DNA from: Spongiibacter thalassae
Lineage (GTDB): Bacteria > Pseudomonadota > Gammaproteobacteria > Pseudomonadales > Spongiibacteraceae
Direction of reading: 5' to 3'
Assembly (NCBI RefSeq): GCF_012272835.1
Contig: NZ_JAAWWK010000001.1
Coordinates: forward strand, 558,001 to 622,000
Length of the DNA: 64,000 nt
In this document: piece after piece, positions 1-21,267 of the stretch
How the letters are laid out: every line of letters starts with the position of its first letter
Position numbering within the stretch: the first letter of the stretch is position 1
Translations under genes and position numbers: made by a program
The notes under the pieces: generated by a model
Seen by the model: only the letters and a program-made list of their open reading frames with translations
What the model was told of the DNA's origin: nothing
The model's database searches: none

Positions 1-651
1 TGTTAACAGCATGACATCGCCTGGGTTTAGCTTGCGACTCTGACCGATTGAAGCGTAATACTCGGTCGCCTGTTGGGCGGTGAAATTAGGTGCTACATCA
101 TTTCTTACCCCTTTGGGCAAGCCGGTGGTGCCGGATGTGTAGATGATTAGCCGAGCGTCGCCAGCCGAGTATAGAGCCGGTGCATCAGCCGCCAACAATT
201 CATCATAGGATACGAAGCCTTCGGCTGGTACGTCCATTGAGATGCGCAATTTAATGGGCAAGCCATCGAAGGCCGGTATTAACGCGGTGGGTGATTCGTC
301 GTCGCACACGACAACGGTGGCGCCGCTATTCATCAAGACGTAATTGACTTCACTTGGAGTGAGACGCCAGTTTAGACCGAGAATCGTGCAGCCGATTTTC
401 GCTGCGGCAGAAGCGAAAATCGCCCATTCATAGCGAATTTGTAAGCGGGTAACAATGATGTCATCGGGGCCAATACCCTGGCGCACGAGCCCCTCGGCGA
501 GTGCGTCTGCGTAGGTGTTCCATTGCTTATAAGTGAGTTGTCGATTGCCGTCGATAATGGCAGTTGTATTGGGTTTTTGCTGGGCCCAATACTCAATGCT
601 TCCTGGAGTTGGCTGAATATCTGCTGATACCACTGCGTTGGAAGTGCTCAT
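1..651 (-). CDS. AMP-dependent acyl-CoA synthetase/ligase, N-terminal part (cut by window edge)
   Basis: The minus-strand frame begins at an ATG at 651 (MSTSNAVVSADIQ...) and stays open to base 1, so about 217 N-terminal residues are visible and the 3' end lies outside the window. The AMP-binding P-loop signature YTSGTTGLPKG sits near residues 160-172. This identifies the ANL superfamily, which activates a carboxylic acid with ATP and transfers it to CoA. The stretch WAQQKPNTTAIIDGNRQLTY is typical of fatty-acid-CoA ligase N-termini. The substrate cannot be read from this part. The gene shares an AT-rich block with a TetR regulator, a TonB receptor and a diheme cytochrome, which suggests catabolism of a hydrophobic compound; that is inference. 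A TTGCTA/TAGCAA palindrome lies about 47 bp upstream of the start. Confidence 0.85.
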   Translation of the reverse strand, partial: MSTSNAVVSADIQPTPGSIEYWAQQKPNTTAIIDGNRQLTYKQWNTYADALAEGLVRQGIGPDDIIVTRLQIRYEWAIFASAAAKIGCTILGLNWRLTPSEVNYVLMNSGATVVVCDDESPTALIPAFDGLPIKLRISMDVPAEGFVSYDELLAADAPALYSAGDARLIIYTSGTTGLPKGVRNDVAPNFTAQQATEYYASIGQSRKLNPGDVMLLT

Positions 652-1078
652 TATTGTTATCTCCTTGGCTGAAATTAGGTTGTGTAGTTGATATTATTTG
701 CTAAGCGCATAGCAAGTCAATGGTGAAGTTGGTCTCGCCGAGTTGATTTTTTTTAAGGTGTTCAGTGGCGGGTGGTTTTCTCGCAGGACATTTGAGTGCG
801 CTGCGGTGATGGAATAGCCAGGTTGTGCAAAGGCTCCCTGGTACTGCGCTGTTGAAAAAAAAGATGTGTGAAGGTGGATCGGCTGCAGCTTGTCTTATCA
901 GTTAATTGGCCTGGAGCTGCTTGCGTGTTTTCGGGAAAAACGGAGGCCGATATACGGCTACATGATCCTTCCAGTTGGCTGGTCGGATCATGCGAGGGGA
1001 ATAAAACTGAGGTGGTAGCGGCAAGCGGAGCAAAGCGCTTTCTATTTGCTCTGGTCGATCAGTTCGATTTCATTGTAA
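652..1078. other. Intergenic region between acyl-CoA ligase start and TetR stop
   Basis: About 430 bp without a convincing gene. It should hold the promoter of the minus-strand acyl-CoA ligase. The only clear structure is a palindrome at 698-715. A 73-codon plus-strand frame at 868-1089 has no ribosome binding site and no recognisable motif, and was rejected. Confidence 0.5.
698..715. promoter_or_regulatory. Palindrome TTGCTA-N6-TAGCAA upstream of acyl-CoA ligase
   Basis: Perfect 6-bp arms separated by 6 bp, 47 bp upstream of the acyl-CoA ligase ATG. The position and size suit an operator for a dimeric repressor such as the TetR protein encoded just beyond. The right arm is part of TAGCAAGT, which recurs twice near the cytochrome gene (4573-4580 and 4766-4773). 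Assignment to a regulator is inference. Confidence 0.35.
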
Positions 1079-1693
1079 TTATTGGATAACACGGAAGCTA
1101 TTAATCGTGGTGCAAATGAATTGTTCGACTACGGCTGAGGGGTCAAAGTCTTTGCTGGATACTGAAAACATGAGAGCGCCGCGAAGAAATGCGTAGATCA
1201 TTTGTGCGGAAGTTGCTGCATCTATGCTGGACTTGATATGACCTGCGTCGATACCGGCGGTGATCTGCTCTTGCAGTGTTGACGTGCCTTTTGTATTTAG
1301 CTTGGTGAAGGCGCGTCCTACAGATTCGTTCACAGGTGCTTGCGCCAGGAGGAAGGAAAAGGCGCGCATGGAGTCGTCCCCCTTTTTCAGTAAATTTGCA
1401 TATTGGCGGATCATTTCAATGAGCATGGGAAGGCCGCGCTCTGCATGCACGCCAGTCGATAAGCCAGCGTAATAGCGTTCAACAATGTGTTCGGCCACTC
1501 GTTCGATCAGTTGGTCTTTAGATGCGAAGTAATGTACTGGCAGTCCGCGGCTATAGCCCGCAGTCTGGCCAACTTCAGCCAACGTGAAACCTTTAAACCC
1601 GTTATGAGCGATCAATGAGACCGCAGCATCAATTAACTTGGATTCAGCCTCTTCCCTGCGGTCTACCTGGGTGCGTCGCTTTTGGATTGTCAT
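1079..1693 (-). CDS. TetR/AcrR family transcriptional regulator
   Basis: 204 residues, the usual TetR size. The N-terminal helix-turn-helix is visible at about residues 16-62, ending in SRGLPVHYFASKDQL, the family signature after the recognition helix. The rest is the ligand-binding and dimerisation domain, with a TetR_C-like C-terminus (MIYAFLRGALMFSV). The ATG at 1693 follows a GGGAG ribosome site. The gene is transcribed away from the TonB-dependent receptor at 1986 and towards the acyl-CoA ligase, so it probably represses one or both neighbours, lifted by an acyl-CoA or hydrophobic ligand. The family is certain; target and ligand are inference. Confidence 0.9.
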   Translation of the reverse strand: MTIQKRRTQVDRREEAESKLIDAAVSLIAHNGFKGFTLAEVGQTAGYSRGLPVHYFASKDQLIERVAEHIVERYYAGLSTGVHAERGLPMLIEMIRQYANLLKKGDDSMRAFSFLLAQAPVNESVGRAFTKLNTKGTSTLQEQITAGIDAGHIKSSIDAATSAQMIYAFLRGALMFSVSSKDFDPSAVVEQFICTTINSFRVIQ

Positions 1694-1734
1694 ATTGATC
1701 TCCCTGTTAGGCTTTTATTCAAATGCCATTTTCT

Positions 1735-1756
1735 CACAAGCTGGCATTAACTTGTG
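1735..1756. promoter_or_regulatory. Inverted repeat CACAAG-N10-CTTGTG in the TetR/TonB-receptor divergent region
   Basis: Six-base perfect arms separated by 10 bp, 42 bp upstream of the TetR ATG, inside the 292-bp region between two divergent genes. The motif GCCATTTTCTC occurs twice in the same region (1725-1735 and 1867-1877). It could be an autoregulatory TetR site, but short repeats like this arise easily by chance. Confidence 0.3.
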
Positions 1757-1985
1757 TGTGATTCAGCAAAATAGTGCAATGGAATTGCCTGTCTGCAGAA
1801 TAAGCTTGACAAGGCCATGGTGAGTCTATAAAACATGCTATACAAATAACAAGTATTTTTTGGCGCGCCATTTTCTCCTTGCTTATTGTTGTGGGTAGCG
1901 ATGAGACTCGAGCAGTTAAACGCATCCATTATGGCAGTAATCTCGCACAGGAAAGTCCGGTCGCCGATCGCAGGAGAGATCATCT

Positions 1986-4430
1986 ATGAATCAAATACTA
2001 AGACCGATTGTGCTTGGGGTTTTCCTGACTGGCGAGGGTGCCGCTGTACTCGCCGCTTCAGGACGGGCGAGCGACGAACATAGTTCAGCTGCGTCCGCCG
2101 AGAACGCATCAGGACAAGTTGTGAGAACCGCTAATCGGCGCGTTTTAGAAGAAGTTTTGGTTACGGCTCAAAAGCGCGAGGAATCATTGCAGGACGTCCC
2201 TATCTCAATTACATCTTTCAGTAATGAGTTTGTGCAGGAAAACTCTATTAGTGATCTTGGTGACCTCAGCTTGTTTGTGCCCAACGCACGTATAGATACC
2301 AACGGGACGTTGCCGCAGTTGAGTATTCGTGGTTTCAATGCTCACCCAATGAATCGTGCTTTTGAGCAGCCCATTTCAATGGTCATTGATGGTGTGACCT
2401 ACGGCACCTCGCCGTACTTTCAGCTTCCACTCTACGACATACAGCGCGTCGAGGTGCTGCGCGGGCCACAGGGAACCTTGTTTGGAAAAAATAGTACGGC
2501 GGGTGCTTTTAATATCGTAACGCGTTCCGGTGGTGATGAATTTAGTGCCAACGTTAATTTACAGTCTGGTCAAAGGGGGCACCGGAGTGTTGAGTTGGGT
2601 GCGGGTGGGCCGCTGGTAGAGGATGAGTTAGAGGTTCGTGTGGTTGCCTCGTTCGATGAACGAGATGGCGCATTGCGAAATACAACAAAAGCTGTGACGC
2701 CGTTAGCCAATGAGCGCAGTGGTGGAAATCGGCGGGAGGCTTGGCGGATAAAATTGACCGCCCCAGATCTGTTGGCGGGTCGCATGGAGTTTACCTACGA
2801 TCATGCAAATGTAGAAATGACGGGGTTGGGCTCAGAGCTTACTTTGGTTAATCCAGACGCAGAGGCGATCTATCGACAGTACGATCCAGGGTTTGATGGT
2901 ATTACCGATAATTACATCACGTCGGTTGATGGTGATGAATTTACTTCTATTGTCGTGGATTCGTTTGCCCTCAATCATAGCTTTGATGTTGGCGATTGGG
3001 GGGTAACACTTGTTGCGGGGTACTCTAAGCTTGAATATCAGTCTGTGATGGATGCTGATTTTGGCCCGACGCCCATGTTGACCCTGGATAACAAGGACAC
3101 GCACCCTCAAACCACGTTCGAGCTTAGAACCGATTCGCCGGATTTGGATGGTTTGCTTGGTTTGGGCAGCATGTTTGGTGCCGATTTAGGCAATAGTCGC
3201 TTGACGACCGGTGTGTTTTGGCAAGATCGTGAGATTAGTGATGCTTTGGGGCGCGTAATAATCGATCCGGCGTCTACTGTGGCCTTACTGGGGATCGATG
3301 CAGGGTCGAGCAGCGCGCCACTACCGGGTGCTCCTGCCATGCCGGGGGGGAGTGGAATTCAGAATGACCCTAGTGACGATGAAATCGTCGATATTGTGTT
3401 CAGTCAAATGACAGAGTCATTGGCTTTTTTCGGACAGTTGGATTGGATGTTTAACTCGGTAACCACGCTGCAGCTTGGGCTGCGGTATGGACAGGAGAGT
3501 AAGAGTGCGAACTGGGAAAGCGCCTACAGTCAAGGAACAGGTGCGCTGGCATTAGCGGCTCTCGGGCGCGAGGAATACGCCGCGCAGCGAGAGCGAGAGG
3601 AATCCAGTCTTATACCGAAAATACTGTTTAAATTTGATATCTCAGATGAGTCGAACGTTTATGTTTCATGGGTTAAGGGGTTTCGTGGCGGCGGGTTCAA
3701 TATGTTCGCCTCTACGTCAGCGGACTCAAACCTTGAGTACGAAGAGGAGGTTGTGGCGTCGTGGGAGGCTGGCGCCAAGTTAAGACTGTTTGACGGTGCG
3801 GCCAACCTTAATATCGCCGTTTTCCGCATGGTCCTTGATGATTTTCAAGTGTTAACGCAGGATCCAGATACAGCGGCCTTTGCTGTGGATAATTCGGGGC
3901 GGGCACTTTCTCAAGGTGTGGAGCTTGATGGAGTATGGTTGCTCACCGACTGGGTAAAACTCCAGGGTTCAGTGGGGTATAACCCTACAGAGTTTTTGGA
4001 ATTTCCTTATGGGGGTTGCACTAAGGATTATCCAGACACCGATGGTGACGGTGATGAGCGTTGTGACTTGACGGGCGAGCCGCTTGATTTCGCCTCGGAA
4101 TGGTCGGCAACACTCGGGCCTCAGTTCAATATCAATGTGCTTGGAGAGTTTGAACTTGTCGCGGGTATCACCGGCATTTATCAGAGTGAATATTACGCTG
4201 ATTTAGCGGTCCGTGATGACCGCGTGTTGCAAGGAGAGTCGCTGCGATGGAATGCGAACATTGGTTTGGGTAGTCGGGATGGGGCGTGGACGGTTCGCCT
4301 TGTGGGGCAGAATCTGACAGATGAAGTTGTTTCGATGTTTATCAGTGATGTGCCTTTATTGACGGGAACGTTCTACCAAGCTCCCGCAGCGCCTCGTAGC
4401 ATACACGGTGAGGTAACTTGGCGGTATTAG
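1986..4430 (+). CDS. TonB-dependent outer membrane receptor
   Basis: 814 residues with an N-terminal export signal (about residues 1-28). A TonB-box-like stretch EEVLVTAQKREESLQDVPIS lies at about 55-74, followed by a plug domain with RGFN and VEVLRGPQGTLFGKN, then a 22-strand-type barrel ending in an aromatic residue (GEVTWRY). The start has an AGGAGA ribosome site. It should import a large or hydrophobic substrate across the outer membrane with TonB-ExbBD energy. The VTAQKREESLQDVP style belongs to the abundant sphingomonad/marine receptors linked to steroids, terpenoids, lipids and glycans rather than classical siderophore receptors. It lies between a TetR gene and a diheme cytochrome lipoprotein gene. 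The true substrate is unknown. A possible hairpin (4442-4449 with 4470-4477) follows the stop. Confidence 0.92.
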   Translation: MNQILRPIVLGVFLTGEGAAVLAASGRASDEHSSAASAENASGQVVRTANRRVLEEVLVTAQKREESLQDVPISITSFSNEFVQENSISDLGDLSLFVPNARIDTNGTLPQLSIRGFNAHPMNRAFEQPISMVIDGVTYGTSPYFQLPLYDIQRVEVLRGPQGTLFGKNSTAGAFNIVTRSGGDEFSANVNLQSGQRGHRSVELGAGGPLVEDELEVRVVASFDERDGALRNTTKAVTPLANERSGGNRREAWRIKLTAPDLLAGRMEFTYDHANVEMTGLGSELTLVNPDAEAIYRQYDPGFDGITDNYITSVDGDEFTSIVVDSFALNHSFDVGDWGVTLVAGYSKLEYQSVMDADFGPTPMLTLDNKDTHPQTTFELRTDSPDLDGLLGLGSMFGADLGNSRLTTGVFWQDREISDALGRVIIDPASTVALLGIDAGSSSAPLPGAPAMPGGSGIQNDPSDDEIVDIVFSQMTESLAFFGQLDWMFNSVTTLQLGLRYGQESKSANWESAYSQGTGALALAALGREEYAAQREREESSLIPKILFKFDISDESNVYVSWVKGFRGGGFNMFASTSADSNLEYEEEVVASWEAGAKLRLFDGAANLNIAVFRMVLDDFQVLTQDPDTAAFAVDNSGRALSQGVELDGVWLLTDWVKLQGSVGYNPTEFLEFPYGGCTKDYPDTDGDGDERCDLTGEPLDFASEWSATLGPQFNINVLGEFELVAGITGIYQSEYYADLAVRDDRVLQGESLRWNANIGLGSRDGAWTVRLVGQNLTDEVVSMFISDVPLLTGTFYQAPAAPRSIHGEVTWRY

Positions 4431-4808
4431 AGTCGACGATCACCTGCCTGCGTCGGATTGATAGGGCTTAGGCAGGTAGATTGTTTTCTCGCGCGACACT
4501 TGACAGCTGAGGGGATGTTTGGAATACTAATTTTTAGGTTAAAATAATTTTTATAAAAACATGTTGAGTAGATAGCAAGTAAGTTCAGTTCAGTTCAGTT
4601 CAGTTCAGTTCAGTTCAGTTCAGTTCAGTTCAGTTCAGTTCAGTTCAGTTCAGTTCAGTTCAGTTCAGTTCAGTTCAGTTCAGTTCAGTTCAGTTCAGAG
4701 AAAGTAAATTACACAATTAAAATAGCGTTTTTGAACAAGTAGCCCGTAAAAATATGTTGAATGATTAGCAAGTTTAGCTAAGTTCACTCTACCTAGGAGA
4801 TAATAATT
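4431..4808. other. Repeat-bearing intergenic region between TonB receptor and cytochrome
   Basis: 378 AT-rich base pairs with no gene. It contains a possible terminator hairpin for the receptor (ACCTGCCT 4442-4449 / AGGCAGGT 4470-4477), the CAGTT array (4582-4698) and imperfect direct repeats flanking the array (about 4555-4587 and 4746-4785). A possible -10 hexamer TAAAAT is at 4718-4723, immediately downstream of the array. Confidence 0.6.
4582..4698. repeat. Pentanucleotide tandem repeat (CAGTT)22
   Basis: 22 uninterrupted perfect copies of CAGTT at 4586-4695, with a partial unit at each end (AGTT at 4582-4585, CAG at 4696-4698). The array ends 110 bp upstream of the cytochrome ATG at 4809 and begins 151 bp after the receptor stop. 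Perfect arrays this long are prone to slipped-strand length change. It lies outside reading frames, so any effect would be on promoter geometry, mRNA leader or termination rather than frameshifting. Confidence 0.97.
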
Positions 4809-6845
4809 ATGAGTGGAGTAAAGATGGGGCTTCCTTATGCCCTACTGGCCGCACTTATGGTCGGATGTGGAGGTGGTGGAGGTTCAGCGACTGTTCCACC
4901 AGTGGATGATGTTGTGGACGTTGTTGATAGTGGTGAGAATGCAGAAGAGTTCCCGCTTCTTGGCAGTCGACATGCCAAAAGCGAGTGGAATCTTTACTGT
5001 GACGGCAAACCCGACTCAGCCGAACTGCCGCCTGATCCTCGGACACTCGTCGTGCCTGGTACTAACGTTGGTAAGGCGGTTTACTTCAATGCCTTCTGGG
5101 AGTCATGTCACGAAAACGTCCCCGAAGAATACAATCCCACGCTTGAAACTTGTGGTGATTGGCGCGCGTCTGTTGAATTTGGCGAGCGCACCATTATCGA
5201 TATATTGCCTTCGATAAGCGCAACGGTATCAGCTGAAGAGTTTGGTTCGGCTTGGCAGGCATGGGGCCTAACCGAGAGGCCTGAAAATTACGATCAAATG
5301 TACACGCTTCGCTACGGCATGAACGCAGCACCCTACGACAACCCCTATCCGCTGCCCGGGGAAGATCCAAACTTGACCAACGGCGGCTCTGGACAGCTGC
5401 CACAAGGCTTCCGCCAAACGAAGGATGCAGACGGCAACTATACTGGCCAGATAGGCTCCACTGCGTGTTTGCTGTGTCACGGCGGTACAATCGGTGATCC
5501 ATACGCGGGGGATGATGTGTTTTCCCTCAAGAACCTGGGTCTCGGAAATAATAACGTGGATCTCGTTATGCAAGGGATTGATTCTGGCGTTCCGATTAAC
5601 GTGCTCTCACTCGGGACCGACCAGCGCGGACAGAACAATGCGACTGGAGGAACGGCTGTTTTGATGGGCCTCCTCGACTGGGATACGCTGGAAATAAACC
5701 CGAATCCAGCTAAGTTGGCAGTGTTGACGGCGGATTCAACACAGGCGACCGGTGCTCAACAGGATGCTCCCGCCTGGTGGGGGGACTCGTTTAAAACGCG
5801 CAAAATGTTCGACGGTGGTCCGGCCATGGATGCCCAGCGACTTGCTTTGGCCGCCGGTGGTGACTTTAGCTATGAGTTCATGGAAACACATGATGACAAG
5901 GTGATGATGTGGTTAACGTCACTGGAGTCGCCAAAATATCCAGGGGAAATTGATATCGCACTGGCTGAACAGGGCGCTATCCTCTTCCACGTTAAGGATT
6001 TGCGTGCGGCGCCAGGTAACGAAGGGAAATTGCCGACCGAAGGTAATGGGTCTTGCGCTAGCTGCCATGGAGTGACTTCGCCTCGCTTTGCCAACGACCC
6101 TGCATTCCTTGACGATCCGGCTTTGGAAGGTATTGCCGCTTATCGCGTGCCACTTGATGTTATTGGTACCGATCCTGCCCACTTCGATCATGTTGGTGAA
6201 GCCATGGCTGATGCTTGGGATTCATCGTTCTGGAGTTATACCGATGGGCAAGATAAATGGGTCGATCCTAAGGATAAAGATCCTGCTCTAGAAATGGCAG
6301 ATGATGGTTTCCCAAAGGATATGCGGCCTGAGGGCGTTTGTAAGTGGAATCGTACTCCAGGCTATATGGCGCCACCGCTATACGGTGTATGGGCGACGTC
6401 TCCCTACCTGCACAATGGTTCTGTTCCTACGCTTGAGGCGGTGTTGGATTCAAGTAAACGACCACAAATATGGCGTCGGCAGTTGCAAACTATTGGGCCT
6501 GTTACAGGGTATGATCAGCGTTTGGATGTGGCCTATGACTATGATTCGGTGGGCTGGAAGCATGATGTGCTGAGTTGTGGCGAGATACCGGGGAATACAC
6601 TGTTCAACTGTAATCCTGTGGACGATGAAGGCCCATCTTATATCCAGACTGTTATGGCTATGGCGAACTCCGCTTTGATGTGGGCCCCTTTTGCTCCAGT
6701 GAATGACCCGACCCCAGGTGCAGAGGATAAGCGCTTCATTATGGACACGCGTAAGTTTGGTAACTCCAATTCAGGGCATGACTTCACTGATGCCTTGACT
6801 GGGCGCGAACGTGAAGCAATTATTGAATACCTGAAAACCCTCTAG
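4809..6845 (+). CDS. Diheme c-type cytochrome lipoprotein, RoxA/MauG-CcpA-like oxygenase or peroxidase
   Basis: 678 residues. The N-terminus has a lipobox (LMVGC, Cys at about 20) followed by a Gly-rich linker, so the mature protein should be membrane-anchored. Two haem c motifs are visible: CLLCH at 220-224 and CASCH at 416-420. Conserved diheme-peroxidase-like stretches are DAPAWWGDSF (about 319-328) and GVWATSPYLHNGSVPTLEAVL (about residues 526-546). From memory, rubber oxygenase RoxA has the same overall length (678) and a near-identical haem spacing (about 199 versus 196 here); classical CcpA peroxidases are about half this size. A RoxA/RoxB-like oxygenase acting on polyisoprene or another unsaturated hydrophobic substrate is therefore the leading reading, but generic diheme peroxidase relatives share these motifs. 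Ribosome site AGGAGA at 4796-4801. A strong terminator follows directly. Confidence 0.75.
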   Translation: MSGVKMGLPYALLAALMVGCGGGGGSATVPPVDDVVDVVDSGENAEEFPLLGSRHAKSEWNLYCDGKPDSAELPPDPRTLVVPGTNVGKAVYFNAFWESCHENVPEEYNPTLETCGDWRASVEFGERTIIDILPSISATVSAEEFGSAWQAWGLTERPENYDQMYTLRYGMNAAPYDNPYPLPGEDPNLTNGGSGQLPQGFRQTKDADGNYTGQIGSTACLLCHGGTIGDPYAGDDVFSLKNLGLGNNNVDLVMQGIDSGVPINVLSLGTDQRGQNNATGGTAVLMGLLDWDTLEINPNPAKLAVLTADSTQATGAQQDAPAWWGDSFKTRKMFDGGPAMDAQRLALAAGGDFSYEFMETHDDKVMMWLTSLESPKYPGEIDIALAEQGAILFHVKDLRAAPGNEGKLPTEGNGSCASCHGVTSPRFANDPAFLDDPALEGIAAYRVPLDVIGTDPAHFDHVGEAMADAWDSSFWSYTDGQDKWVDPKDKDPALEMADDGFPKDMRPEGVCKWNRTPGYMAPPLYGVWATSPYLHNGSVPTLEAVLDSSKRPQIWRRQLQTIGPVTGYDQRLDVAYDYDSVGWKHDVLSCGEIPGNTLFNCNPVDDEGPSYIQTVMAMANSALMWAPFAPVNDPTPGAEDKRFIMDTRKFGNSNSGHDFTDALTGREREAIIEYLKTL

Positions 6846-6851
6846 TCCATT

Positions 6852-6889
6852 GCCGGAACGTGCATTGCGCGCTCCGGCCTTTTTTTTTG
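6852..6889 (+). terminator. Intrinsic terminator after the diheme cytochrome gene
   Basis: GCCGGA (6852-6857) pairs with TCCGGC (6873-6878), with further partial pairing in the loop, followed by a run of nine T (6881-6888 plus neighbours). It begins 7 bp past the stop codon. Confidence 0.9.
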
Positions 6890-7393
6890 TAGTTCTAACG
6901 TTTGGTTATTATCCTCTAAGTGCAATTTTCGCAGTATCTGTGGCGGAGTTTGTTGTAGGTGGTAGCGTAAAAAATACAAGAAAATAGGTTGACGATATAA
7001 AGAACTAAAATAATGTTTTAAAGGATATTCTGATTGTGAAAATTACCGGGATTGCGATAGTTTGCCGAAAAGCCAGGGATTATTTTTTGTATTACCTCGT
7101 GGCCACTGTTTTCAGGAAACGCTGAATTCGGTTGTTCTTGGTTTATATCGTAGATAGTAATTTTTTTATTACTTCTTAGGGTCAAAAATAATAGTGTGCC
7201 AGTATTTTTTAATTAACCAAAATAATTCATAAGAATTATTTTGGTTAATTAAAGAGTAAACGTGGACGTCTTGTCATGATTTCTTGGGATTCATTGTGTA
7301 GTGCACGTAAACAATCCAGATTATTTGTAGTCGTCGAATAAGCGTTTTAGTTTGGGTGTTAATAATAAATAATAGACAGTTGCGGAGGTGCTG
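6890..7393. other. AT-rich intergenic region upstream of the AraC regulator
   Basis: About 500 bp, very AT-rich, with no credible gene on either strand. It contains a 21-bp perfect inverted repeat at 7208-7253. The rest looks like ordinary promoter or leader DNA for the AraC-type gene; no tRNA or known RNA motif was recognised. Confidence 0.5.
7208..7253. repeat. 21-bp perfect inverted repeat with a 4-nt loop
   Basis: Left arm 7208-7228 (TTTAATTAACCAAAATAATTC, one base longer than quoted elsewhere) pairs perfectly with 7233-7253 across the loop ATAA. It lies 140 bp upstream of the AraC-type start. The arms are about 80% A/T. It is not followed by a T-run, so it is not a standard terminator. 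It may be a regulator site, a cruciform, or the relic of a palindromic insertion. Confidence 0.9.
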
Positions 7394-8401
7394 GTGAGGT
7401 TGCCCACGGTTTGCAAATCATATTTAGACGGAGTCCTAAGGTATCTGGATGTTAATAATATAACTCGAGCAGAGTTGGAGGTTGAGTTAGGTTGGAATCC
7501 TTCTGATCATCTAACCGACTCGGGAAGGTTTCCGCTTCGGTTCTTTGAGTTTCTACTTGAGGCCGCTTCAGTCCTTTTACAGGATGAAAAGGCTAGTGTT
7601 AAATCTGGTATGTACGTTGGTGAGAATGATATCGGCTTTGCCGATTATCTTTTGAAAAGCGCGCCTGGCAGTACAAAGGCAATATCGGCAATTGTGGAGT
7701 GCTCGCCGGTGCTTCTGGATTTCGGTGCTTTAGGGGTTGAGTTAAGTAAAAAAAGCACGACGTTGCTGTGGGAGCTTCCCCCAAAAACTAATGTTTCGCT
7801 TAAATTTATAGAATTTCATTTGTCGGTATTATGCAAAATATTAGATGCTGTGCTCCTTGAGGATTGCTTTTGTAAAGTAGGCCTGCGTAGTGGTATTCCT
7901 GTCGATAATATTAAATCTGTGTTGGGCGTTGATGTGGTGAACACCAAATCCAATTGTCTTAGCTACATTGAAATAGATTCAGCATATTTTGATGAATGTA
8001 AATTTAAGCCGGAAGAATTTGTTCACGATGCGATGCTTCAACGTCTTCGCCGTGAAATGGCGATTATGCGGCGAGATTCTCGTTTTGCTAGTACTGTTTA
8101 CGAGCAAATAAACGTTGAGCTAATAAACGGGAATTGTAATGTAGAGAAAGTGGCAGAATGTTTGAGTGTTTCGTCGCGTACGCTTCAGCGCAGATTGAGT
8201 GAGTGCGGGACGTCATTCAGTGAGATATTAGACGATGTTAGGCGAAATTTAGCCGGTGAGTTGATTGTTGATGCGCGGAAAAGCTATATGGAAATGACAC
8301 TGATCCTTGGCTTTTCTAACAAGTCCAGTTTCCATAAAGCATTTAATCGATGGTTCAATGTTGCGCCCGGGGTATACAGGGAATGTTTGGTGAATAATTG
8401 A
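7394..8401 (+). CDS. AraC family transcriptional regulator (Arabinose_bd plus HTH_18 type)
   Basis: 335 residues from the GTG at 7394. That start is chosen because GGAGG at 7384-7388 sits five bases ahead of it; the GTG at 7388 overlaps the ribosome site itself. The N-terminal ~200 residues match the OruR/ArgR-like sensing domain, and the C-terminus carries two helix-turn-helices: VEKVAECLSVSSRTLQRRLSE, and MTLILGFSNKSSFHKAFNRWF followed by the family ending P-x-x-YR (PGVYR). The gene follows the cytochrome in the same orientation after a terminator and long leader, so it has its own promoter. It is AT-rich like the locus to its left. The likely role is activation of the neighbouring receptor/cytochrome genes in response to their substrate; that is inference. 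Confidence 0.9.
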   Translation: MRLPTVCKSYLDGVLRYLDVNNITRAELEVELGWNPSDHLTDSGRFPLRFFEFLLEAASVLLQDEKASVKSGMYVGENDIGFADYLLKSAPGSTKAISAIVECSPVLLDFGALGVELSKKSTTLLWELPPKTNVSLKFIEFHLSVLCKILDAVLLEDCFCKVGLRSGIPVDNIKSVLGVDVVNTKSNCLSYIEIDSAYFDECKFKPEEFVHDAMLQRLRREMAIMRRDSRFASTVYEQINVELINGNCNVEKVAECLSVSSRTLQRRLSECGTSFSEILDDVRRNLAGELIVDARKSYMEMTLILGFSNKSSFHKAFNRWFNVAPGVYRECLVNN

Positions 8402-8404
8402 CTT

Positions 8405-8466
8405 GCCAAAGAGCCAAAGAGCCAAAGAGCCAAAGAGCCAAAGAGCCAAAGAGCCAAAGAGCCAAA
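8405..8466. repeat. Octanucleotide tandem repeat (GCCAAAGA)7
   Basis: Seven perfect copies of GCCAAAGA (8405-8460) plus a partial eighth (to 8466), beginning three bases after the AraC-type stop codon. Open frames across it on the minus strand give only repetitive LALWLFGS peptide and are artefacts. Such arrays vary in copy number by slippage; here it would sit in the 3' untranslated region. Confidence 0.97.
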
Positions 8467-11110: not shown

Positions 11111-11241
11111 GAAGGCTAGGGTTCCGATCACCGCAATGGTGATGACTGGTCCGAGAGCTTTCGACCTCCTCTGAATTTGGCTTGCTGTATTTGCGAAAGC
11201 CGGCGCAGAAAGGTTACACGGCGGGACAAAAGCCCGGGAGA
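11111..11241 (+). ncRNA. Guanidine-I riboswitch (ykkC/yxkD class)
   Basis: Three conserved blocks of the class occur in order: CTAGGGTTCCG (11116-11126), ACTGGTCCGAGAG (11145-11157), and the ACACGGCGGGACAAAAGCCC block (11216-11235) followed by GGGAGA. Between the first two is a hairpin ATCACC-GCAA-TGGTGAT with a GNRA tetraloop. The RNA senses guanidinium and normally switches gene expression on. No separate terminator hairpin with a T-run is seen between it and the first gene. The ribosome sites at 11259-11263 and 11292-11296 lie just downstream, so translational control is possible. The downstream genes are those expected for this class. Confidence 0.95.
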
Positions 11242-11302
11242 CGATCGGCGATTTAGCCAGGAGTGCTCTATGAAACCGCGTAACACTAGCCGGAGGTTCG
11301 CT

Positions 11303-12343
11303 ATGAAGCGACTAGCTGCTGTACTACTTACACTGACGTTCTCCTCTTTCTCTTTTGCTGCTGACAGCTTTAAGGTCTGTTGGTCGATTTACGTCGGCTG
11401 GATGCCCTGGGGCTATGGCGACGAACAAAAAATCGTCGATAAATGGGCGAAGAAATACGGCATTGAAATTGATGTCGTGCAGATCAATGACTACATCGAG
11501 TCGATCAACCAGTACACCACCGGCGCCTTTGACGCCTGCACCATGACCAATATGGATGCGCTGACCATTCCCGCTGCGGGGGGCGTTGATAGCACCGCAT
11601 TGGTGGTGGGTGATTTCTCCAACGGCAACGACGGAGTTGTGCTGAAGGGCTACGACTCGTTGAAAGACATCAAGGGCCAGCAGGTGAATCTGGTCGAGCT
11701 GAGTGTGTCCCACTATCTGCTGGCGCGGGGGTTGGATAGCGTTGGCCTGAAAGAAGCCGATGTGACCGTGGTGAATACCTCTGATGCGGATATGGTCGCC
11801 GTGTTCCCTACGGCGGGTATTACCTCTGTAGCAACGTGGAACCCGCTGCTCAGCGAAATTCTGACCATGCCCGGTGCCAACAAGGTGTTTGATTCCTCGC
11901 AGATTCCCGGCGAGATTATCGACTTGCTGGTGATTAATACCGAGGTGCTGAAAAACAACCCCAAACTGGGTAAAGCCTTGACCGGCGCCTGGTATGAAAT
12001 TATGGCGACCATGAGCGGTAGCGACGCCAAGGCTGTGGCCGCACGCACGTCGATGGCCCAGGCTTCCGGCACCGATCTGGCCGGTTTCGAGGCCCAGCTT
12101 GCCAGCACAGAAATGTTCTACAAGCCCGCCGACGCGGTGGCTTTTACCCGATCTGACGCCCTGAAAACCACCATGAAAAACGTGGCAGAGTTTTCCTTTG
12201 CACACGGCCTGTTGGGCGATGGCGCACCGGATGCCGGATTCATCGGCATTGAAACCCCCGCTGGTGTATTTGGCAACAAGGGTAATATCAAGCTGCGCTT
12301 CAATCCCAGTTATATGCAGATGGCCGCCGACGGCAAGCTGTAA
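11303..12343 (+). CDS. ABC transporter periplasmic substrate-binding protein (urea/guanidine type, NMT1/TauA-like)
   Basis: First gene after the guanidine-I riboswitch. The start at ATG 11303 gives a clean Sec signal (MKRLAAVLLTLTFSSFSFAA, cleaved before ADSFKV) and has GGAGG six bases upstream. ATG 11270, with its own AGGAG, is an alternative giving 11 extra residues. The mature protein begins with WSIYVGWMPWGYG and shows the nitrate/sulfonate/taurine binding-protein fold. It is the type annotated as putative urea ABC transporter binding protein beside urea carboxylases. With the riboswitch, guanidinium is the likely ligand. It should deliver ligand to the permease/ATPase pair encoded next. 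Confidence 0.9.
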   Translation: MKRLAAVLLTLTFSSFSFAADSFKVCWSIYVGWMPWGYGDEQKIVDKWAKKYGIEIDVVQINDYIESINQYTTGAFDACTMTNMDALTIPAAGGVDSTALVVGDFSNGNDGVVLKGYDSLKDIKGQQVNLVELSVSHYLLARGLDSVGLKEADVTVVNTSDADMVAVFPTAGITSVATWNPLLSEILTMPGANKVFDSSQIPGEIIDLLVINTEVLKNNPKLGKALTGAWYEIMATMSGSDAKAVAARTSMAQASGTDLAGFEAQLASTEMFYKPADAVAFTRSDALKTTMKNVAEFSFAHGLLGDGAPDAGFIGIETPAGVFGNKGNIKLRFNPSYMQMAADGKL

Positions 12344-12361
12344 TTCCCCTGGAACCTTAAT

Positions 12362-13186
12362 ATGAAGCGAATGATAAACCTGGCGCCGGGCAAGGTCTGG
12401 CGCGTTGCCCTGGCGATGTTGCCCTTTGCCCTGATTCTGCTGGTGTATATGGCAGCCTCGGATGCCCGGCTGGCAGAGAACCCTCAGGACAAGTTACTGC
12501 CGAGCTTTGAGCAGATGGGCGATGCCATCAATCGGCTGGCCTTTGAGCCCAGCAAGCGCACTGGCGAGTACCTGTTCTGGCAGGACACCCTCAGCAGCTT
12601 GCAGCGTTTGGGAATGGGCATGGCCATTGCCGCTTCATTGGGCATGTTTCTGGGCCTGATGACCGGTGCCTTGCCCATGTTGAACGCCAGCTTCGCACCG
12701 CTTCTCACGGTGGTGTCGCTGATTCCGCCGATGGCGATTCTGCCGGTGCTGTTTATCGTGTTCGGTTTGGGAGAAGTGTCGAAGGTGGCGCTGATCGCCA
12801 TTGGCACCACGCCGTTTATCGCTCGGGATATTCAAAAGCGCTGCCTTGAAATTCCCCGTGAACAACTGGTGAAGGCCCAAACCCTGGGCGCCAACAGTTT
12901 TCAGATTATTGTGCGGGTGCTGGTGCCCCAGTTGCTGCCGCGACTGCTCGACGCGATGCGTTTATCCCTCGGTGCAGCCTGGCTGTTCCTGATTGCCGCC
13001 GAGGCGATCGCTGCGACAGATGGCTTGGGCTATCGCGTGTTTCTGGTGCGCCGCTACCTGTCGATGGATGTGATTCTGCCCTATGTGGCGTGGATTACCG
13101 TGCTGGCCTTTGTGATTGATTTCGCCCTGCAAAAGCTGAGTCGTGTGGCCTTTCCCTGGCATGAACCCAAGGAGGGCGGCGCATGA
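12362..13186 (+). CDS. ABC transporter permease (guanidine/urea importer)
   Basis: 274 residues with about six hydrophobic segments (residues 14-31, 83-105, 115-140, 142-152, 203-222 and 235-255). The cytoplasmic EAA loop is visible as EIPREQLVKAQTLGANSFQIIVRVLVPQLLP, the BPD_transp_1 signature that contacts the ATPase. It begins 18 bp after the binding-protein stop and overlaps the ATPase gene by four bases (ATGA), so it is translationally coupled. It belongs to the nitrate/taurine importer type, not the LivHM-type Urt urea importer. Confidence 0.92.
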   Translation: MKRMINLAPGKVWRVALAMLPFALILLVYMAASDARLAENPQDKLLPSFEQMGDAINRLAFEPSKRTGEYLFWQDTLSSLQRLGMGMAIAASLGMFLGLMTGALPMLNASFAPLLTVVSLIPPMAILPVLFIVFGLGEVSKVALIAIGTTPFIARDIQKRCLEIPREQLVKAQTLGANSFQIIVRVLVPQLLPRLLDAMRLSLGAAWLFLIAAEAIAATDGLGYRVFLVRRYLSMDVILPYVAWITVLAFVIDFALQKLSRVAFPWHEPKEGGA

Positions 13187-13962
13187 TCGAAATCAACAAT
13201 ATGTGGAAGCGATACGGCGATAGCGTGATTCTGGAAAATATCTCCGCCAGGGTGGCCGAGGGCGAATTTATTACCCTGGTCGGCGCTTCGGGCTGCGGCA
13301 AGAGTACCTTTCTACGTATGTTGCTCGGCACTGACACACCCAGTCAGGGGCAAATTCTGCTGGATGGCAAACCCATTGCCGACGAGCCGGACAGCGACCG
13401 CGGTGTGGTATTTCAGCAGTATTCGGTGTTCCCCCATTTGACTGTACTCGACAACGTGGTGGTGGCTCGGGCCTTCGCCGACAGTCGCTTTGGCTTTTTA
13501 TTCGGCGCGCGCAAACGTGCCGCCATCGCCGAGGCCGAGGAGCTGTTGAATATTGTTGGGCTGAGCCATATGCAGCACCGCTATCCCGACGCCCTGTCGG
13601 GTGGAATGCGGCAGCGGCTGGCCATCGCTCAGGCGCTGATTCTTAAACCGCGAATTCTGCTGCTGGATGAACCCTTTGGTGCCCTCGACCCCGGTATTCG
13701 CGCCGATATGCACGAGCTGGTACTGCGCCTGTGGCGCCAGCACAAACTCACCATTTTTATGGTTACCCACGATTTGAAAGAGGGCTTTCATCTGGGCACT
13801 CGCCTGTGGGTGTTCGACAAGTTGCGCAACGACCCCCAGGCCCCCAATGCCTACGGTGCAGGGATCACCTACGACCTGCCGGTGGGAGCCTGTGAACCGG
13901 AGTTGCTGGAAGAAATTGACCAAAGCATGACGGCGACCGACGCCGTGGTGGATTCACTATGA
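13183..13962 (+). CDS. ABC transporter ATP-binding protein (guanidine/urea importer)
   Basis: 259 residues containing all ABC motifs: Walker A GASGCGKST (about 35-43), Q-loop VVFQQYSVFPHLTV, signature LSGGMRQRLAIAQAL (about 139-153), Walker B ILLLDEPFGALD (about 160-171) and H-loop MVTHDLKEG. It is closest in style to the TauB/SsuB/NrtD ATPases. It overlaps the permease gene upstream and the DUF1989 gene downstream by four bases each. It powers uptake by the preceding binding protein and permease. Confidence 0.94.
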   Translation: MIEINNMWKRYGDSVILENISARVAEGEFITLVGASGCGKSTFLRMLLGTDTPSQGQILLDGKPIADEPDSDRGVVFQQYSVFPHLTVLDNVVVARAFADSRFGFLFGARKRAAIAEAEELLNIVGLSHMQHRYPDALSGGMRQRLAIAQALILKPRILLLDEPFGALDPGIRADMHELVLRLWRQHKLTIFMVTHDLKEGFHLGTRLWVFDKLRNDPQAPNAYGAGITYDLPVGACEPELLEEIDQSMTATDAVVDSL

Positions 13963-14693
13963 CGGACCTGGCAATGACAAGCATGACCGAATACCACACC
14001 GAGCTGGCTGCTGGTGGCCACTGGTCGCTGGAGCTGCCCCGTGGCACCCAGCTGACCCTGTGCGACATCGACGGAGGCGGCAATGCCGGTGTGTTGTTTT
14101 ACAACCCGAAAAACCTGCTGGAGCGTTACAACGCGCCGGATACTCTCAAATGCCAGCACAGCTTCAAGCTGACCCGTGGCCACTGCCTGTACTCGGACAT
14201 GGGGCGCATCTTTGCCTCAATCACCGCTGATGACAGCGGTTGGCACGATACCGTGTGTGGCAATTCCCACGCCAGCCATGTGGCGGCGCGCTGGGGTAAG
14301 CGGGACTATCAGAGCCAGCGCAATAACTGGCTGCAAAACGGCAATGACGCCTTTTTGGTGGAGCTGGCCAAATATGGCCTCGGCCCTCGGGATATGGCGG
14401 CAAATATCAATTTTTTCAGCAAGGTGGTGACCGATGCCGAGGGCAATATGCGCCTTGATAACACCGCCAGCGAGGCGGGGCGGAAGGTCACCTTGCGCAT
14501 CGAAATGGATACTCTGGTAGTGCTTCATGCCTGCCCCCATCCACTGAATACCTCGGCGGATTATCCCCGCCGCCGAATCGGCGTGGAGCTGGCGGTGGCA
14601 CCGCCGATGACGGAGGACGATCCGTGTCTGAATCTGTGTGATGAAAATCGCCGGGGCTTTGCCAACAACGCCCTGTACCACTTTGGCCGCTAA
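13959..14693 (+). CDS. Urea amidolyase-associated protein 1 (DUF1989); carboxyguanidine deiminase subunit
   Basis: 244 residues of the DUF1989 family. It shows the family pattern: an early CDIDGGGNAGVLFYNP stretch, GHCLYSDMGRIFASI, a WHDTVCGNS segment, NINFFSKV and a late VVLHACPHPLN, with conserved His and Cys residues that could bind a metal. Homologues encoded beside riboswitch-controlled urea carboxylases form, with their partner (next gene), the heteromeric enzyme that converts carboxyguanidine to allophanate and ammonia. The ATG at 13959 overlaps the ATPase stop; ATG 13974 is an alternative. Family membership is read from sequence; the reaction is from known biology of these operons. 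Confidence 0.9.
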   Translation: MTDLAMTSMTEYHTELAAGGHWSLELPRGTQLTLCDIDGGGNAGVLFYNPKNLLERYNAPDTLKCQHSFKLTRGHCLYSDMGRIFASITADDSGWHDTVCGNSHASHVAARWGKRDYQSQRNNWLQNGNDAFLVELAKYGLGPRDMAANINFFSKVVTDAEGNMRLDNTASEAGRKVTLRIEMDTLVVLHACPHPLNTSADYPRRRIGVELAVAPPMTEDDPCLNLCDENRRGFANNALYHFGR

Positions 14694-15448: not shown

Positions 15449-18400
15449 ATGTACAACAAAGTTTTGATAGCCAATCGCGGGGCCATTGCCACCCGGATTA
15501 TTCGTACCTTGCATCAATTGGGTGTGACCGCAGTGGCGGTCTACGCCGAGGCCGATGCCCGCAGCCTGCATGTACGCCAGGCCGACGAGGCCTATAGCCT
15601 GGGTGAGGGCGGCGCGGCAGACACCTATTTGAACGCGGCGCGGATACTGGAGATTGCCCGGAGCTGCGGCGCCGAGGCAATTCACCCCGGCTACGGTTTT
15701 CTCAGTGAAAACGCCGAGTTTGTACGCGCCTGCGACAAGGCGGGTATTACCTTTATCGGCCCCACCGCCGAGCATATGGAAAGCTTTGGCCTCAAGCACC
15801 GCGCCCGGGACCTTGCCGCCGCACAGGGGCTGCCCCTGCCACCGGGTTCCGGCTTGCTTAACGACCTGGAGCAGGCGCGGAGTGTCGCCGCTGATATAGG
15901 TTACCCGGTGATGCTGAAAAGCACCGCTGGTGGTGGCGGTATTGGTATGCAGGTGTGCGCCAGTGATGAGGAGTTGTGTGCGGCCTTTGATAAGGTCAGG
16001 CAGCTGGGACAGAGCAATTTCGCCGACGACGGTATTTTCCTTGAAAAATACATCGCCCGCGCGCGTCATATTGAAGTGCAGGTATTCGGCGACGGTGCTG
16101 GTGGTGTGCTGGCTCTGGGTGAGCGGGATTGCAGTGCCCAGCGCCGCAACCAGAAGGTGATTGAAGAATGCCCCGCGCCGAATCTCGATGATGAGGTTCG
16201 TGCGCGCTTACATACCCTGTCGGAAAACCTGCTGGCGGCGGTGCAGTATCGCAATGCCGGAACGGTGGAATATATCTACGATCAGGACACCGGCGAGTTT
16301 TACTTTCTTGAAGTGAATACCCGCTTACAGGTTGAGCACGGCGTGACCGAGATGGTCTGGTGTGTGGATCTGGTCGAGTGGATGCTGCAACAGGCCTGCG
16401 GCGAACTGCCACCGCTGGTGGAGCTGCGGGCCGGACTTGCGCCACGGGGTCACGCCCTGCAACTGCGGGTCTATGCCGAAGACCCCTATCTGAATTTTCA
16501 GCCCAGCGCTGGCCTGCTGAGCAAGGTCGCTTTTCCTGCCGAGGGGACTTTGTCGGGGACCGACACTAATAGGAGCAGGGGCACGGGCCTGCGTATTGAG
16601 CACTGGCTGGACAGTGGCCTGGAAGTGTCTCCCTATTTCGATCCGATGCTGGCCAAGATTCTGTTTCATGGCGACGATCGCGACAGCGCCATAGCCGGAC
16701 TGGCAGAGGCGGTGGATGAGTGCGAAATTTATGGTATTGAAACCAACCTCGATTACTTACGCGGTCTGCTCGACAGCGAGGTGGTCAAAGCGGGAGAGGT
16801 GACCACCCGCTATCTGGCAACCTGGCCCTGGCAGCCCCTGCGAATGGATGTGCTGCAGGGCGGCACCCAAACTACCATTCAGGATTACCCGGCGCGGCTG
16901 GGCTATTGGAATGTGGGCGTTCCGCCGTCGGGGCCTTTCGACAGTTACTCCTTCCGTCTCGCCAATCGTCTGCTCGGCAATAGCGACGATGCGGCGGCCT
17001 TGGAAATTACCCTGCAGGGACCCACCCTGAAATTCAGCGCCGCCACGGCAATTGTGGTGACCGGGGCAGAAACACCGATCAGCCTTGATGGCGAGCCCTT
17101 GGCGATGTGGGAGGTGCACCCGGTACAGGCGGGTCAGGTGTTGACGCTGGGGCGTATTGCGTCGGGCGCGCGGAGTTACCTGGCAGTCGCTGGGGGCATT
17201 CAGTGCCCGGAATATCTGGGTTCGCGCTCGACCTTTACCCTCGGTCAGTTCGGCGGTCATAGCGGCCGCGCCCTGCGTACCGGTGACGTGCTGCGCTTGA
17301 CTGCTGCGGTGCCCCGAGTGGCGGCATTGCCGAATTGCCTGAAGCCGAAAATTGAGGAGGCCTGGGAGCTGAGGGTGATTTATGGCCCCCACGGTGCCCC
17401 GGACTTTTTCACCGAAAATGATATTGAAACGTTCTTTGCTGCTGAGTGGGAGGTGCACTACAACTCCAGCCGCACCGGGGTGCGGTTGATTGGCCCGAAG
17501 CCTGAGTGGGCCAGAGACAGCGGCGGCGAGGCGGGAATGCATCCGTCGAATATTCACGACAATGCCTACGCCTTTGGTACGGTGGATTTTACCGGCGATA
17601 TGCCGGTCATCCTCGGGCCGGATGGACCGTCGCTGGGGGGCTTTGTCTGCCCGGTCACGGTGATCAGCGCCGACCTGTGGAAGTTGGGACAGTTGCGCGC
17701 CGGTAATAAAATTCGCTTTGTGCCGGTGAGTGTGGCCGATGCGGTGGCCGAGGAGAAATTCCAGTTACAGGCCCTGCGCGAGCTGGCGGCACCGGGCCCT
17801 GCCTTGCAGCCGCTGCGTTCGTTGCCGTCGCCCATTGTGCAGCACCTGGATGCCGACACCGTGGGCGACGAGGTGGTGTATCGAGTGGCGGGAGACCATT
17901 TTTTACTGGTGGAGTATGGGCCGCTGGAGTTGGATATTCGTTTGCGGTTTCGCGCCCATGCGCTGATGCAGCAGTTACAGCAGGCCCCGATCGAGGGGGT
18001 GCTGGAAATGACGCCCGGCATTCGCTCCCTGCAATTGCATTACAACCCGCTGGTGCTGCCGCTCAAGGAATTGCTCAGACAATTGGCGAGCATTGAGCGA
18101 ATGCTGGCCAGCCGCCTGGACAGCCTGAGCGTGCCCTCGCGAACGGTGTATTTACCGCTGAGTTGGGACGACGCCGCCTGCCGTCTGGCCATTGAAAAGT
18201 ACCAGCAGTCGGTGCGGGCCAACGCGCCCTGGTGCCCGAGTAATCTGGAATTTATACGGCGTATCAATGGGCTGGACAGCATCGACGAGGTCAAGCGCAT
18301 TGTGTTCGATGCGGACTATCTGGTGATGGGGCTGGGCGACGTGTATCTGGGCGCGCCGGTGGCGACGCCGGTCGATCCCCGTCACCGGCTGGTCACTACC

Positions 18401-21046: not shown

Positions 21047-21262
21047 ATGAATGACCTTGAAACCGTTAAAGAACATTGCCCCTATTGCGGCGAGCTGATC
21101 GAATTACTGATCGACTGCTCCGAGTTTCAACAAACCTATACCGAAGATTGCCAGGTGTGCTGTCGGCCGATGGTAGTGGTGGTTCAGCTAAACAGCGACG
21201 ATCGTTTTGATAGTGCAGATTTCGATATCTACGTCGAATTGCGCAGCGAAGATGAGGCGTGA
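21047..21262 (+). CDS. Small CPXCG-motif cysteine-rich protein
   Basis: 71 residues from the ATG at 21047 (MNDLETVKEHCPYCGE). Two paired-cysteine knuckles, CPYCG near residue 11 and CQVCC near residue 35, suggest one structural zinc, and the acidic C-terminus (YVELRSEDEA) is typical of the family (PF14255 type). Function is not known. The open frame extends upstream to 20972, but the extension is not conserved-looking and lacks the motif. It stands alone after the guanidine operon and is followed directly by a REP-like repeat cluster. Confidence 0.85.
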   Translation: MNDLETVKEHCPYCGELIELLIDCSEFQQTYTEDCQVCCRPMVVVVQLNSDDRFDSADFDIYVELRSEDEA

Positions 21263-21267
21263 TGTTA

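What the first reader, a model, noticed from the sequence alone, without database searches (positions are those of the whole stretch)
1..8401. AT-rich locus pairing a TonB receptor with a RoxA-like diheme oxygenase: candidate hydrophobic-polymer or terpenoid degradation island
In one compositionally distinct block lie an acyl-CoA ligase, a TetR repressor, a sphingomonad-type TonB receptor, a 678-residue diheme c lipoprotein with haem spacing near that of rubber oxygenase, and an AraC activator. Together they suggest oxidative cleavage at the cell surface, uptake through the receptor and CoA activation of products. This combination with a lipid-anchored RoxA-like enzyme would be an unusual arrangement.
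Basis: partly seen in the sequence, partly recalled or inferred. Interest (0 to 1): 0.7.

Follow-up and report, generated by a model that had tools for sequence, protein, structure and literature searches.

The report
Acquired RoxC oxygenase-like lipoprotein with TonB receptor
A marine bacterium carries, in an apparently acquired stretch of DNA, a lipid-anchored relative of the enzymes that cut natural rubber, next to an uptake receptor and breakdown genes; this type of enzyme has no known job, and gene neighbourhoods in related bacteria point to a flavin-based electron supply that could be tested.

Summary
The genes are as described. The cytochrome (4809-6845) is not RoxA-like in its active site but a divergent member of the published RoxC group: lipobox Cys20, pI 4.3, RoxA W302 and F317 replaced by F334 and A349. 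RoxC function is unknown; two expressed RoxCs showed no rubber oxygenase activity. The low-GC block extends left to about C1:551 kb and holds a CoA ligase-crotonase-SDR-thiolase operon. The TonB pairing alone is weak evidence (87 TonB matches in the genome). Two specific links help: the AraC's only full-length paralogues found in the genome stand at its two C11 Rox clusters, and the receptor's closest relative found in 85 genomes lies inside another rox island. A perfect (AGTTC)23.4 array stands before roxC and may make it phase-variable. Beyond the window, Rox genes adjoin a Trx-DUF4266-DUF3570-ApbE flavinylation operon: one DUF3570 type is in 27 of 30 Rox-bearing against 5 of 55 other genomes of one order. 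My searches found no paper linking the two. Most likely: oxidation of an isoprenoid-like substrate at the outer membrane, uptake, CoA-dependent breakdown. Substrate and electron route are inference.

The parts
1..651 (-). 5' part of an acyl-CoA ligase (524 aa, C1:557077-558651); the operon continues left of the window with crotonase, SDR and thiolase genes (C1:554023-557052)
   Evidence: PF00501; NCBIfam ligase matches below their cut-offs; extension read in L009
1079..1693 (-). TetR-family regulator, divergent from the receptor gene; not of the TetR types of the C11 Rox clusters
   Evidence: PF00440; no TetR of the C11 types counted in the window context
1986..4430 (+). TonB-dependent receptor, 814 aa
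   Evidence: PF00593 and PF07715; nearest relatives 54%; best match in 85 genomes lies in a rox island
4500..4528 (+). promoter-like site TTGACA-17-AATACT with TG before the second hexamer
   Evidence: 10 of 12 matches, the best of 7 found where shuffles give 8.7 on average; consensus match only
4582..4698 (.). perfect pentanucleotide array (AGTTC)x23.4 between receptor stop and roxC start
   Evidence: TRF, 100% match; exact five-copy pattern found at this one array only in the genome held
4795..4800 (+). ribosome-binding-site-like AGGAGA before the roxC ATG
   Evidence: sequence
4809..6845 (+). RoxC-group dihaem c-type lipoprotein, 678 aa (lipobox Cys20, CLLCH 220-224, CASCH 416-420, PYLHNGSVP 532-540, H657)
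7388..8401 (+). AraC-family regulator of the type found at the genome's two C11 Rox clusters
   Evidence: PF12833; the only full-length paralogues found are at C11:34646-35644 and C11:53279-54289
8405..8466 (.). perfect octanucleotide array (GCCAAAGA)x7.8 just after the AraC stop, at the right edge of the low-GC block
   Evidence: TRF

Best explanation
This is a horizontally acquired Rox module. A RoxC-group dihaem lipoprotein, held on the outer membrane by its N-terminal lipid, oxidatively attacks a hydrophobic unsaturated substrate, most likely an isoprenoid or terpenoid; the TonB receptor imports the oxidised pieces, and the CoA ligase, crotonase, SDR and thiolase on the left degrade them after CoA activation. 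The AraC (Rox type) and TetR control it, and the (AGTTC)n array before roxC may add phase-variable expression. Because RoxC lacks the O2-stabilising Phe of RoxA/RoxB and published RoxCs are isolated in the ferric form, it may need electrons; these could come from the Trx-DUF4266-flavinylated DUF3570-ApbE system encoded near the Rox clusters on contig C11. Shown by computation: RoxC kinship, low-GC block, shared regulator type, receptor kinship, array, Rox-DUF3570 association. Inferred: substrate, direction of transport, electron delivery, phase variation.
For: RoxC model 876.6 bits against RoxB 525.9 and RoxA 474.7; inside the clade that holds the rows over the RoxC cut-off, SH-aLRT 99; A and F at the F317/W302 positions; only significant solved fold 4b2n RoxA, E 7.4e-44; pI 4.34. 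Left operon families. Low-GC block. AraC: the two full-length paralogues (179 and 164 bits; next 57) both stand at C11 Rox clusters. Receptor: one relative of 54-55% in 85 genomes, between Rox genes of a Salinisphaerales MAG, next best 38%. The C11 region also holds a P450 closest to P450terp, alcohol and acyl-CoA dehydrogenases and CoA ligases. Rox-DUF3570: 27 of 30 against 5 of 55 genomes in one order, 10 of 12 against 6 of 45 among relatives; 27 of 41 genes of this type in Rox-bearing genomes lie within 10 kb of a Rox gene, against 0 of 16 of the high-scoring DUF3570 type.
Against: Two published RoxCs showed no rubber oxygenase activity. RoxB is also ferric as isolated and yet active, so the ferric state does not prove a need for electrons. 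The window locus has no DUF3570, P450 or ACAD gene of the tested types beside it. Its four-gene CoA operon and its TetR were not found at the other Rox contexts, although more distant CoA ligases recur. TonB genes are so dense on C1 that 26% of random points lie within 3 kb of one. Only 8 of 39 Rox contexts held a TonB and 7 of 39 an AraC of the tested types, the window's included. The window protein is under the NCBIfam RoxC cut-off and on a long branch, so it may have drifted in function. None of the four left-operon genes reaches a curated cut-off. The genome search for the receptor scored at most 11 candidates a genome.
Confidence: 0.5

Rival explanations
1. RoxC acts on envelope lipids: it oxidises unsaturated fatty acids of the cell envelope (the suggestion of Prakash et al. 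2024), and the receptor and CoA genes are neighbours without a shared pathway.
For: Lipid anchor and lack of rubber oxygenase activity of tested RoxCs; the window's CoA operon and TetR were not found at other Rox contexts.
Against: AraC and receptor kinship with other rox islands; CoA ligase (9 of 39), P450 (8 of 39) and ACAD (6 of 39) genes recur in Rox contexts.
Confidence: 0.2
2. RoxC is a dihaem peroxidase or electron-transfer protein, not an oxygenase; with the DUF3570 flavin system it forms an extracytosolic redox chain, for example to peroxide or another acceptor.
For: Ferric as isolated and no CO effect for RoxC of Fontimonas; Rox-DUF3570 association; match below cut-off to the di-haem cytochrome c peroxidase subfamily model (104 of 150 bits).
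Against: Sequence and fold are RoxA-type over nearly the full length, MauG and peroxidase folds not significant. The proximal His of the N-terminal haem is kept as in RoxA; whether a distal ligand exists here was not tested.
Confidence: 0.2
3. A true rubber oxygenase of RoxA/RoxB function.
For: Family kinship, two haem motifs and MauG motif.
Against: F317 replaced by Ala, W302 by Phe, haem-1 motif CLLCH instead of CSxCH; RoxA 475 of 1000 and RoxB 526 of 900 bits; the RoxCs tested so far inactive.
Confidence: 0.05
4. Chance assembly: the low-GC block is a mosaic of unrelated acquired genes.
For: TonB density; three adjoining ORFs without Pfam match; no tRNA target in L009; no empty site found.
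Against: Shared Rox-type AraC and receptor kinship; low GC3 of the eight genes tested.
Confidence: 0.15

Closest known systems
RoxC group (Rox-related proteins of Fontimonas thermophila, Oceanococcus atlanticus; NCBIfam NF051462)
   Same: Lipobox, acidic pI, Ala for F317, Phe for W302, CASCH second haem, MauG motif, clade position
   Different: Score 876.6 under cut-off 900; CLLCH first haem where the two published ones have CFQCH; no third-haem domain (as in the Oceanococcus one); no relative above 56% identity seen; beside a TonB receptor in a low-GC block, with a repeat array before the gene
RoxA of Steroidobacter cummioxidans 35Y (PDB 4b2n)
   Same: Homology over nearly the full length (E 2.8e-113) and fold (TM 0.77/0.81), haem and axial His positions
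   Different: RoxA is not a lipoprotein; distal Phe and Trp absent here; pI 7.3 against 4.3
RoxB/LatA
   Same: Dihaem Rox architecture; proteins over the RoxB cut-off occur in the rox cluster of Spongiibacter pelagi
   Different: F309 equivalent absent here; 526 bits against cut-off 900
DUF3570/ApbE/DUF4266/thioredoxin flavinylation clusters (Meheust et al. 2021)
   Same: The C11 operon has all four parts, two SGAS motifs in DUF3570 and a C-terminal CGC in DUF4266
   Different: The word rubber does not occur in that paper's main text; this operon type stands near Rox genes; it is not in the window itself

Membership tests
RoxC group | Clusters with RoxCs apart from RoxA and RoxB | tested here: met
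   SH-aLRT 99 for the fork of 51 rows; quick tree of 83 rows with one RoxA row; window is a long branch
RoxC group | Lipoprotein signal with Cys after the cleavage site | tested here: met
   LMVGC20, Cys20 invariant in 7 of 7 aligned; judged by eye, no predictor run
RoxC group | F317 and W302 equivalents replaced (A, F) | tested here: met
   A349, F334; published pattern
RoxC group | Strongly acidic pI | tested here: met
   4.34 for residues 20-678
RoxC group | NCBIfam NF051462 equivalog cut-off, 900 bits | tested here: not met
   876.6 bits; the model covers the third-haem domain that is absent here, but matches without that part reach 1150 bits in other genomes, so the protein is also divergent. 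I therefore say RoxC group, not NCBIfam RoxC equivalog
RoxA | F317 and W302, haem 1 CSxCH, cut-off 1000 bits | tested here: not met
RoxB | F309 (F317 equivalent), cut-off 900 bits | tested here: not met
   A349; 525.9 bits
Rubber oxygenase (function) | O2-dependent polyisoprene cleavage | not testable with these tools
   needs purified protein
Phase-variable locus | Repeat number differs between cells and changes expression | not testable with these tools
   one assembly only; array shown
Horizontally acquired island | Atypical composition with normal flanks | tested here: met
Horizontally acquired island | Empty site in a relative, or a tRNA target | tested here: inconclusive
   Right-flank gene found in 1 of 17 other genus genomes, whose surroundings differ; no tRNA in L009; integrases were not searched for

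The most novel reading that the evidence does not exclude
RoxC-group proteins are reductively activated outer-membrane oxygenases fed with electrons by an ApbE-flavinylated DUF3570/DUF4266/thioredoxin relay. That would explain why RoxC expressed alone is ferric and inactive, would give the orphan DUF3570 system a role, and the window holds a phase-variable, acquired copy with its own receptor, served by the relay in trans.
Probability: 0.25. Interest if true: 0.8.

Novelty: new variant of a known kind. Interest (0 to 1): 0.58.

Why it matters
RoxCs are the largest Rox group (243 of 458 sequences in the 2024 survey) and have no known function; the role of DUF3570 electron transfer is also called uncertain. 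Their co-occurrence gives one concrete, testable answer to both: add the flavinylated partner and a reductant to RoxC, and test terpenoid substrates. It also shows rox islands of up to nine genes in Spongiibacteraceae, a group in which single RoxB listings (Zhongshania sp. ZX-21, Spongiibacter tropicus) were already in a review table (passage).

Tried and rejected
Empty-site test: the right-flank gene's only relative among 17 other genus genomes (G007) has a different neighbourhood, so no insertion point could be drawn. A repeat search upstream of the receptor (1694-1985) gave no inverted repeat. TonB adjacency as evidence by itself was rejected after finding 87 TonB matches in the genome, 86 over cut-off, and 14% and 26% of random C1 points within 1.5 and 3 kb of one of the 47 on C1. 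Reading the protein as RoxA or RoxB was rejected. The gene caller written works poorly on GC-rich loci (one search shows no Rox gene for L079, L088 and others, and one search did not return roxC itself, added), so one search used all ORFs. Repeat arrays near Rox genes elsewhere (4 of 6 arrays within 1.5 kb upstream of a Rox ORF in 1.19 Mb of contexts chosen for Rox, the window's included) are only suggestive: the cut-offs were chosen after a first look, the L091 array lies inside an ORF and a TetR gene stands between the G005 array and its Rox gene. The two DUF3570 types were split by bit score (150-260; 300 or more) after seeing the tables; without the split the association is 29 of 30 against 16 of 55 and 11 of 12 against 16 of 45. 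Relatedness of genomes was not corrected for.
Full report
1. Observation. The window is C1:558001-622000 of a 4.4 Mb, 13-contig genome. One genus-mate, G001, has a contig of 651712 bases with a Rox gene ending at 287513, as has the Zhongshania antarctica DSM 25701 record; another, G009, fits Spongiibacter pelagi KMU-158 in the same way (405556 bases; Rox end 347149). So the window is taken to be from the Zhongshania/Spongiibacter group of Spongiibacteraceae (lineage). This is inference from contig lengths and places.

2. The block. GC falls from about 0.55-0.60 to 0.35-0.57 between about C1:551.0 and 566.5 kb. Seven genes in it have GC3 0.41-0.59 (z -3.2 to -8.5) and poorer synonymous codon fit (z -2.6 to -5.8) than 59 background genes of at least 150 aa; the genes next to the block on either side are normal. 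roxC itself, which the caller did not return, has GC3 0.50 (z -5.7). Left of the window lies an operon, in order of transcription: ligase (C1:557077-558651), crotonase (556282-557052), SDR (ending at 555393) and an SCP-x/lipid-transfer-type thiolase (554023-555261). None reaches a curated cut-off; the crotonase matches PRK08252 and EchA19 best, and the ligase also matches a steroid-24-oyl-CoA synthetase model, below cut-off. Three further ORFs at 551483-553256 have no Pfam match, and no tRNA is in L009.

3. The cytochrome. NCBIfam scores are RoxC 876.6 (cut-off 900), RoxB 525.9 (900), RoxA 474.7 (1000). RoxA 4b2n is the only significant solved relative by sequence (E 2.8e-113) and by fold (E 7.4e-44, TM 0.77/0.81; model mean pLDDT 81.4, pTM 0.86). 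In an alignment with RoxA the His positions 195, 394, 517 and 641 are kept; W302 is F334 and F317 is A349; the positions 251/252/254/255/301 read A/T/G/T/M here. Of 119 homologues (the 120 listed of 668, less the window's own), 101 read HAVAFFFAAHHH and 15 HAVGFFFAAHHH over the twelve positions. Residues 20-678 have pI 4.34 and 71.4 kDa. The published description of RoxC (Prakash et al. 2024, PMC10837239; parts 1-3 of 5 read plus passages) gives the same substitutions, lipobox and acidic pI, two partially purified RoxCs without rubber oxygenase activity as unpublished results, and an unknown function. The window protein lacks the N-terminal third-haem domain that 88 of the 119 homologues have by motif count, falls inside the RoxC clade on a long branch (quick tree of 83 rows, namely 44 of the 119 homologues, 33 Rox genes of related genomes, 4 own paralogues, RoxA and the window), and its best identity is 55% by BLASTP (only the 7997 candidates sharing most words were scored) or 56% over tree columns.

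4. Links to other Rox loci. The genome has further Rox genes: C11:59312-61717 (RoxC, 1165 bits), C11:62114-65497 (RoxB-like, 877 of 900 bits, keeps Phe at 317), C11:39515-42394 and a 1623-aa protein at C6:216624-221495 (both with Leu at 317). The window AraC has 21 other matches in the genome; the two full-length ones (179 and 164 bits, 32% identity) stand at C11:34646 and C11:53279, each next to a TonB gene in the Rox clusters, and the next best scores 57 bits over the HTH part (neighbours). The window receptor has, in 85 genomes of the order of Solimonas fluminis (G057), one relative at 54-55%, in G120 C39:23708-26275, between Rox genes at 16966-19107 and 35530-40218; the next is 38%. At most 11 candidates a genome were scored there. 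G120 is taken to be the Salinisphaerales MAG ERR599162_bin.92 because its contig 256 has the length of CALBOV010000256.1 and its Rox gene the same end. Against this, the window's TetR type and its four-gene CoA operon were not seen at other Rox contexts, and only 8 of 39 Rox contexts hold a TonB gene of the tested types, the window's included.

5. Flavinylation operon. At C11:46690-51542 stand a thioredoxin-like protein, a 70-aa DUF4266 protein ending CGCN, DUF3570 with two SGAS motifs, and, after a gap, ApbE. Meheust et al. 2021 (PMC8238504, passages only) showed that a DUF3570 protein is flavinylated by ApbE and call the function uncertain; 'rubber' does not occur in the main text held. Comparing (57 relatives; 85 genomes of the Solimonas order): the 150-260-bit DUF3570 type is in 10 of 12 Rox-bearing against 6 of 45 other genomes (Fisher p 9.5e-6) and in 27 of 30 against 5 of 55 (p 5.7e-14); it lies within 10 kb of a Rox gene in 9 of 12 and in 17 of 30 Rox-bearing genomes. 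Of 41 genes of this type in Rox-bearing genomes 27 are within 10 kb of a Rox gene; of 16 genes of the high-scoring type none is. Exceptions: G008, G044, G059 and G076 have Rox without this type, G064 has only fragments under 150 bits at contig ends, and eleven Rox-free genomes have a match of this score. The genomes are related, so the p-values overstate independence; draft contigs hide some distances; G057, with ten Rox places, has its DUF3570 21.6 kb from the nearest. In print (PubMed Central library only) DUF3570 gave that one paper (the same with ApbE or cytochrome), 'rubber oxygenase' with 'flavinyl' gave none, and RoxC with 'rubber oxygenase' gave only Prakash et al.. The window has no such operon; service from C11 in trans is inference.

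6. Substrate hints. The C11 region also has a P450 whose best solved relatives are 3tkt and P450terp 1cpt (that these are CYP108 enzymes is recalled), zinc and iron alcohol dehydrogenases and an acyl-CoA dehydrogenase, and CoA ligases. The genome paper of Steroidobacter cummioxidans lists TonB receptors and FadL as candidate outer-membrane transporters (Sharma et al. 2018, PMC5979037, passages). I therefore rate an isoprenoid or terpenoid as likeliest, without direct evidence.

7. Repeat array. Between receptor stop and roxC ATG stands a perfect (AGTTC)x23.4 array (4582-4698); five exact copies in a row were found nowhere else in the genome held, on either strand. The best promoter-like site (4500-4528) lies upstream of it, so the array would be in the transcribed leader if that site is used. 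A second perfect array, (GCCAAAGA)x7.8, follows the AraC stop. Length changes in such arrays cause phase variation in other bacteria (recalled); here nothing was measured.

8. Verdict. A real and interesting locus, misnamed as RoxA-like. It is a divergent RoxC-group gene in an apparently acquired block, with specific though indirect ties to other Rox clusters. The broader result, the Rox-DUF3570 association, is new as far as my searches go and makes an open question testable. The mended count (5 of 55 for 4 of 55) did not call for a change of odds.

Noticed in passing
G003 has seven in a similar cluster.
   Followed up: partly
C6:216624-221495 of the window's genome and L051:9929-15355: Giant Rox proteins of 1623 and 1808 aa with long N-terminal extensions and Leu at the F317 position.
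   Followed up: partly
L053 14542-14573 (G009), L068 8873-8928 (G005), L091 9238-9291: Perfect short tandem arrays upstream of Rox ORFs; with the window's, 4 of 6 arrays found in 1.19 Mb of chosen contexts lie within 1.5 kb upstream of a Rox ORF.
   Followed up: partly
window 7203-7258: Inverted repeat of 26-nt arms, 92% complementary, loop 4, between roxC and araC; possible terminator or operator.
   Followed up: no
window 11177-14693: Genes that look like an ABC transporter (binding protein, permease, ATPase) followed by one that looks like a urea carboxylase-associated protein (all recalled from the translations, not tested).
   Followed up: no
window 21255-21595: 97-bp unit repeated 3.6 times holding GGAGCGGGCCCAGCCCGCGA, similar to REP elements (recalled).
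   Followed up: no
window 58872-61232: RnfC-like gene (recalled, not tested) with a long alanine-rich C-terminal tail, which probably explains the strong AT skew of this stretch.
   Followed up: no
L064:10157-10657: A 166-aa DUF2505 protein directly upstream of Rox in a genus-mate.
   Followed up: no
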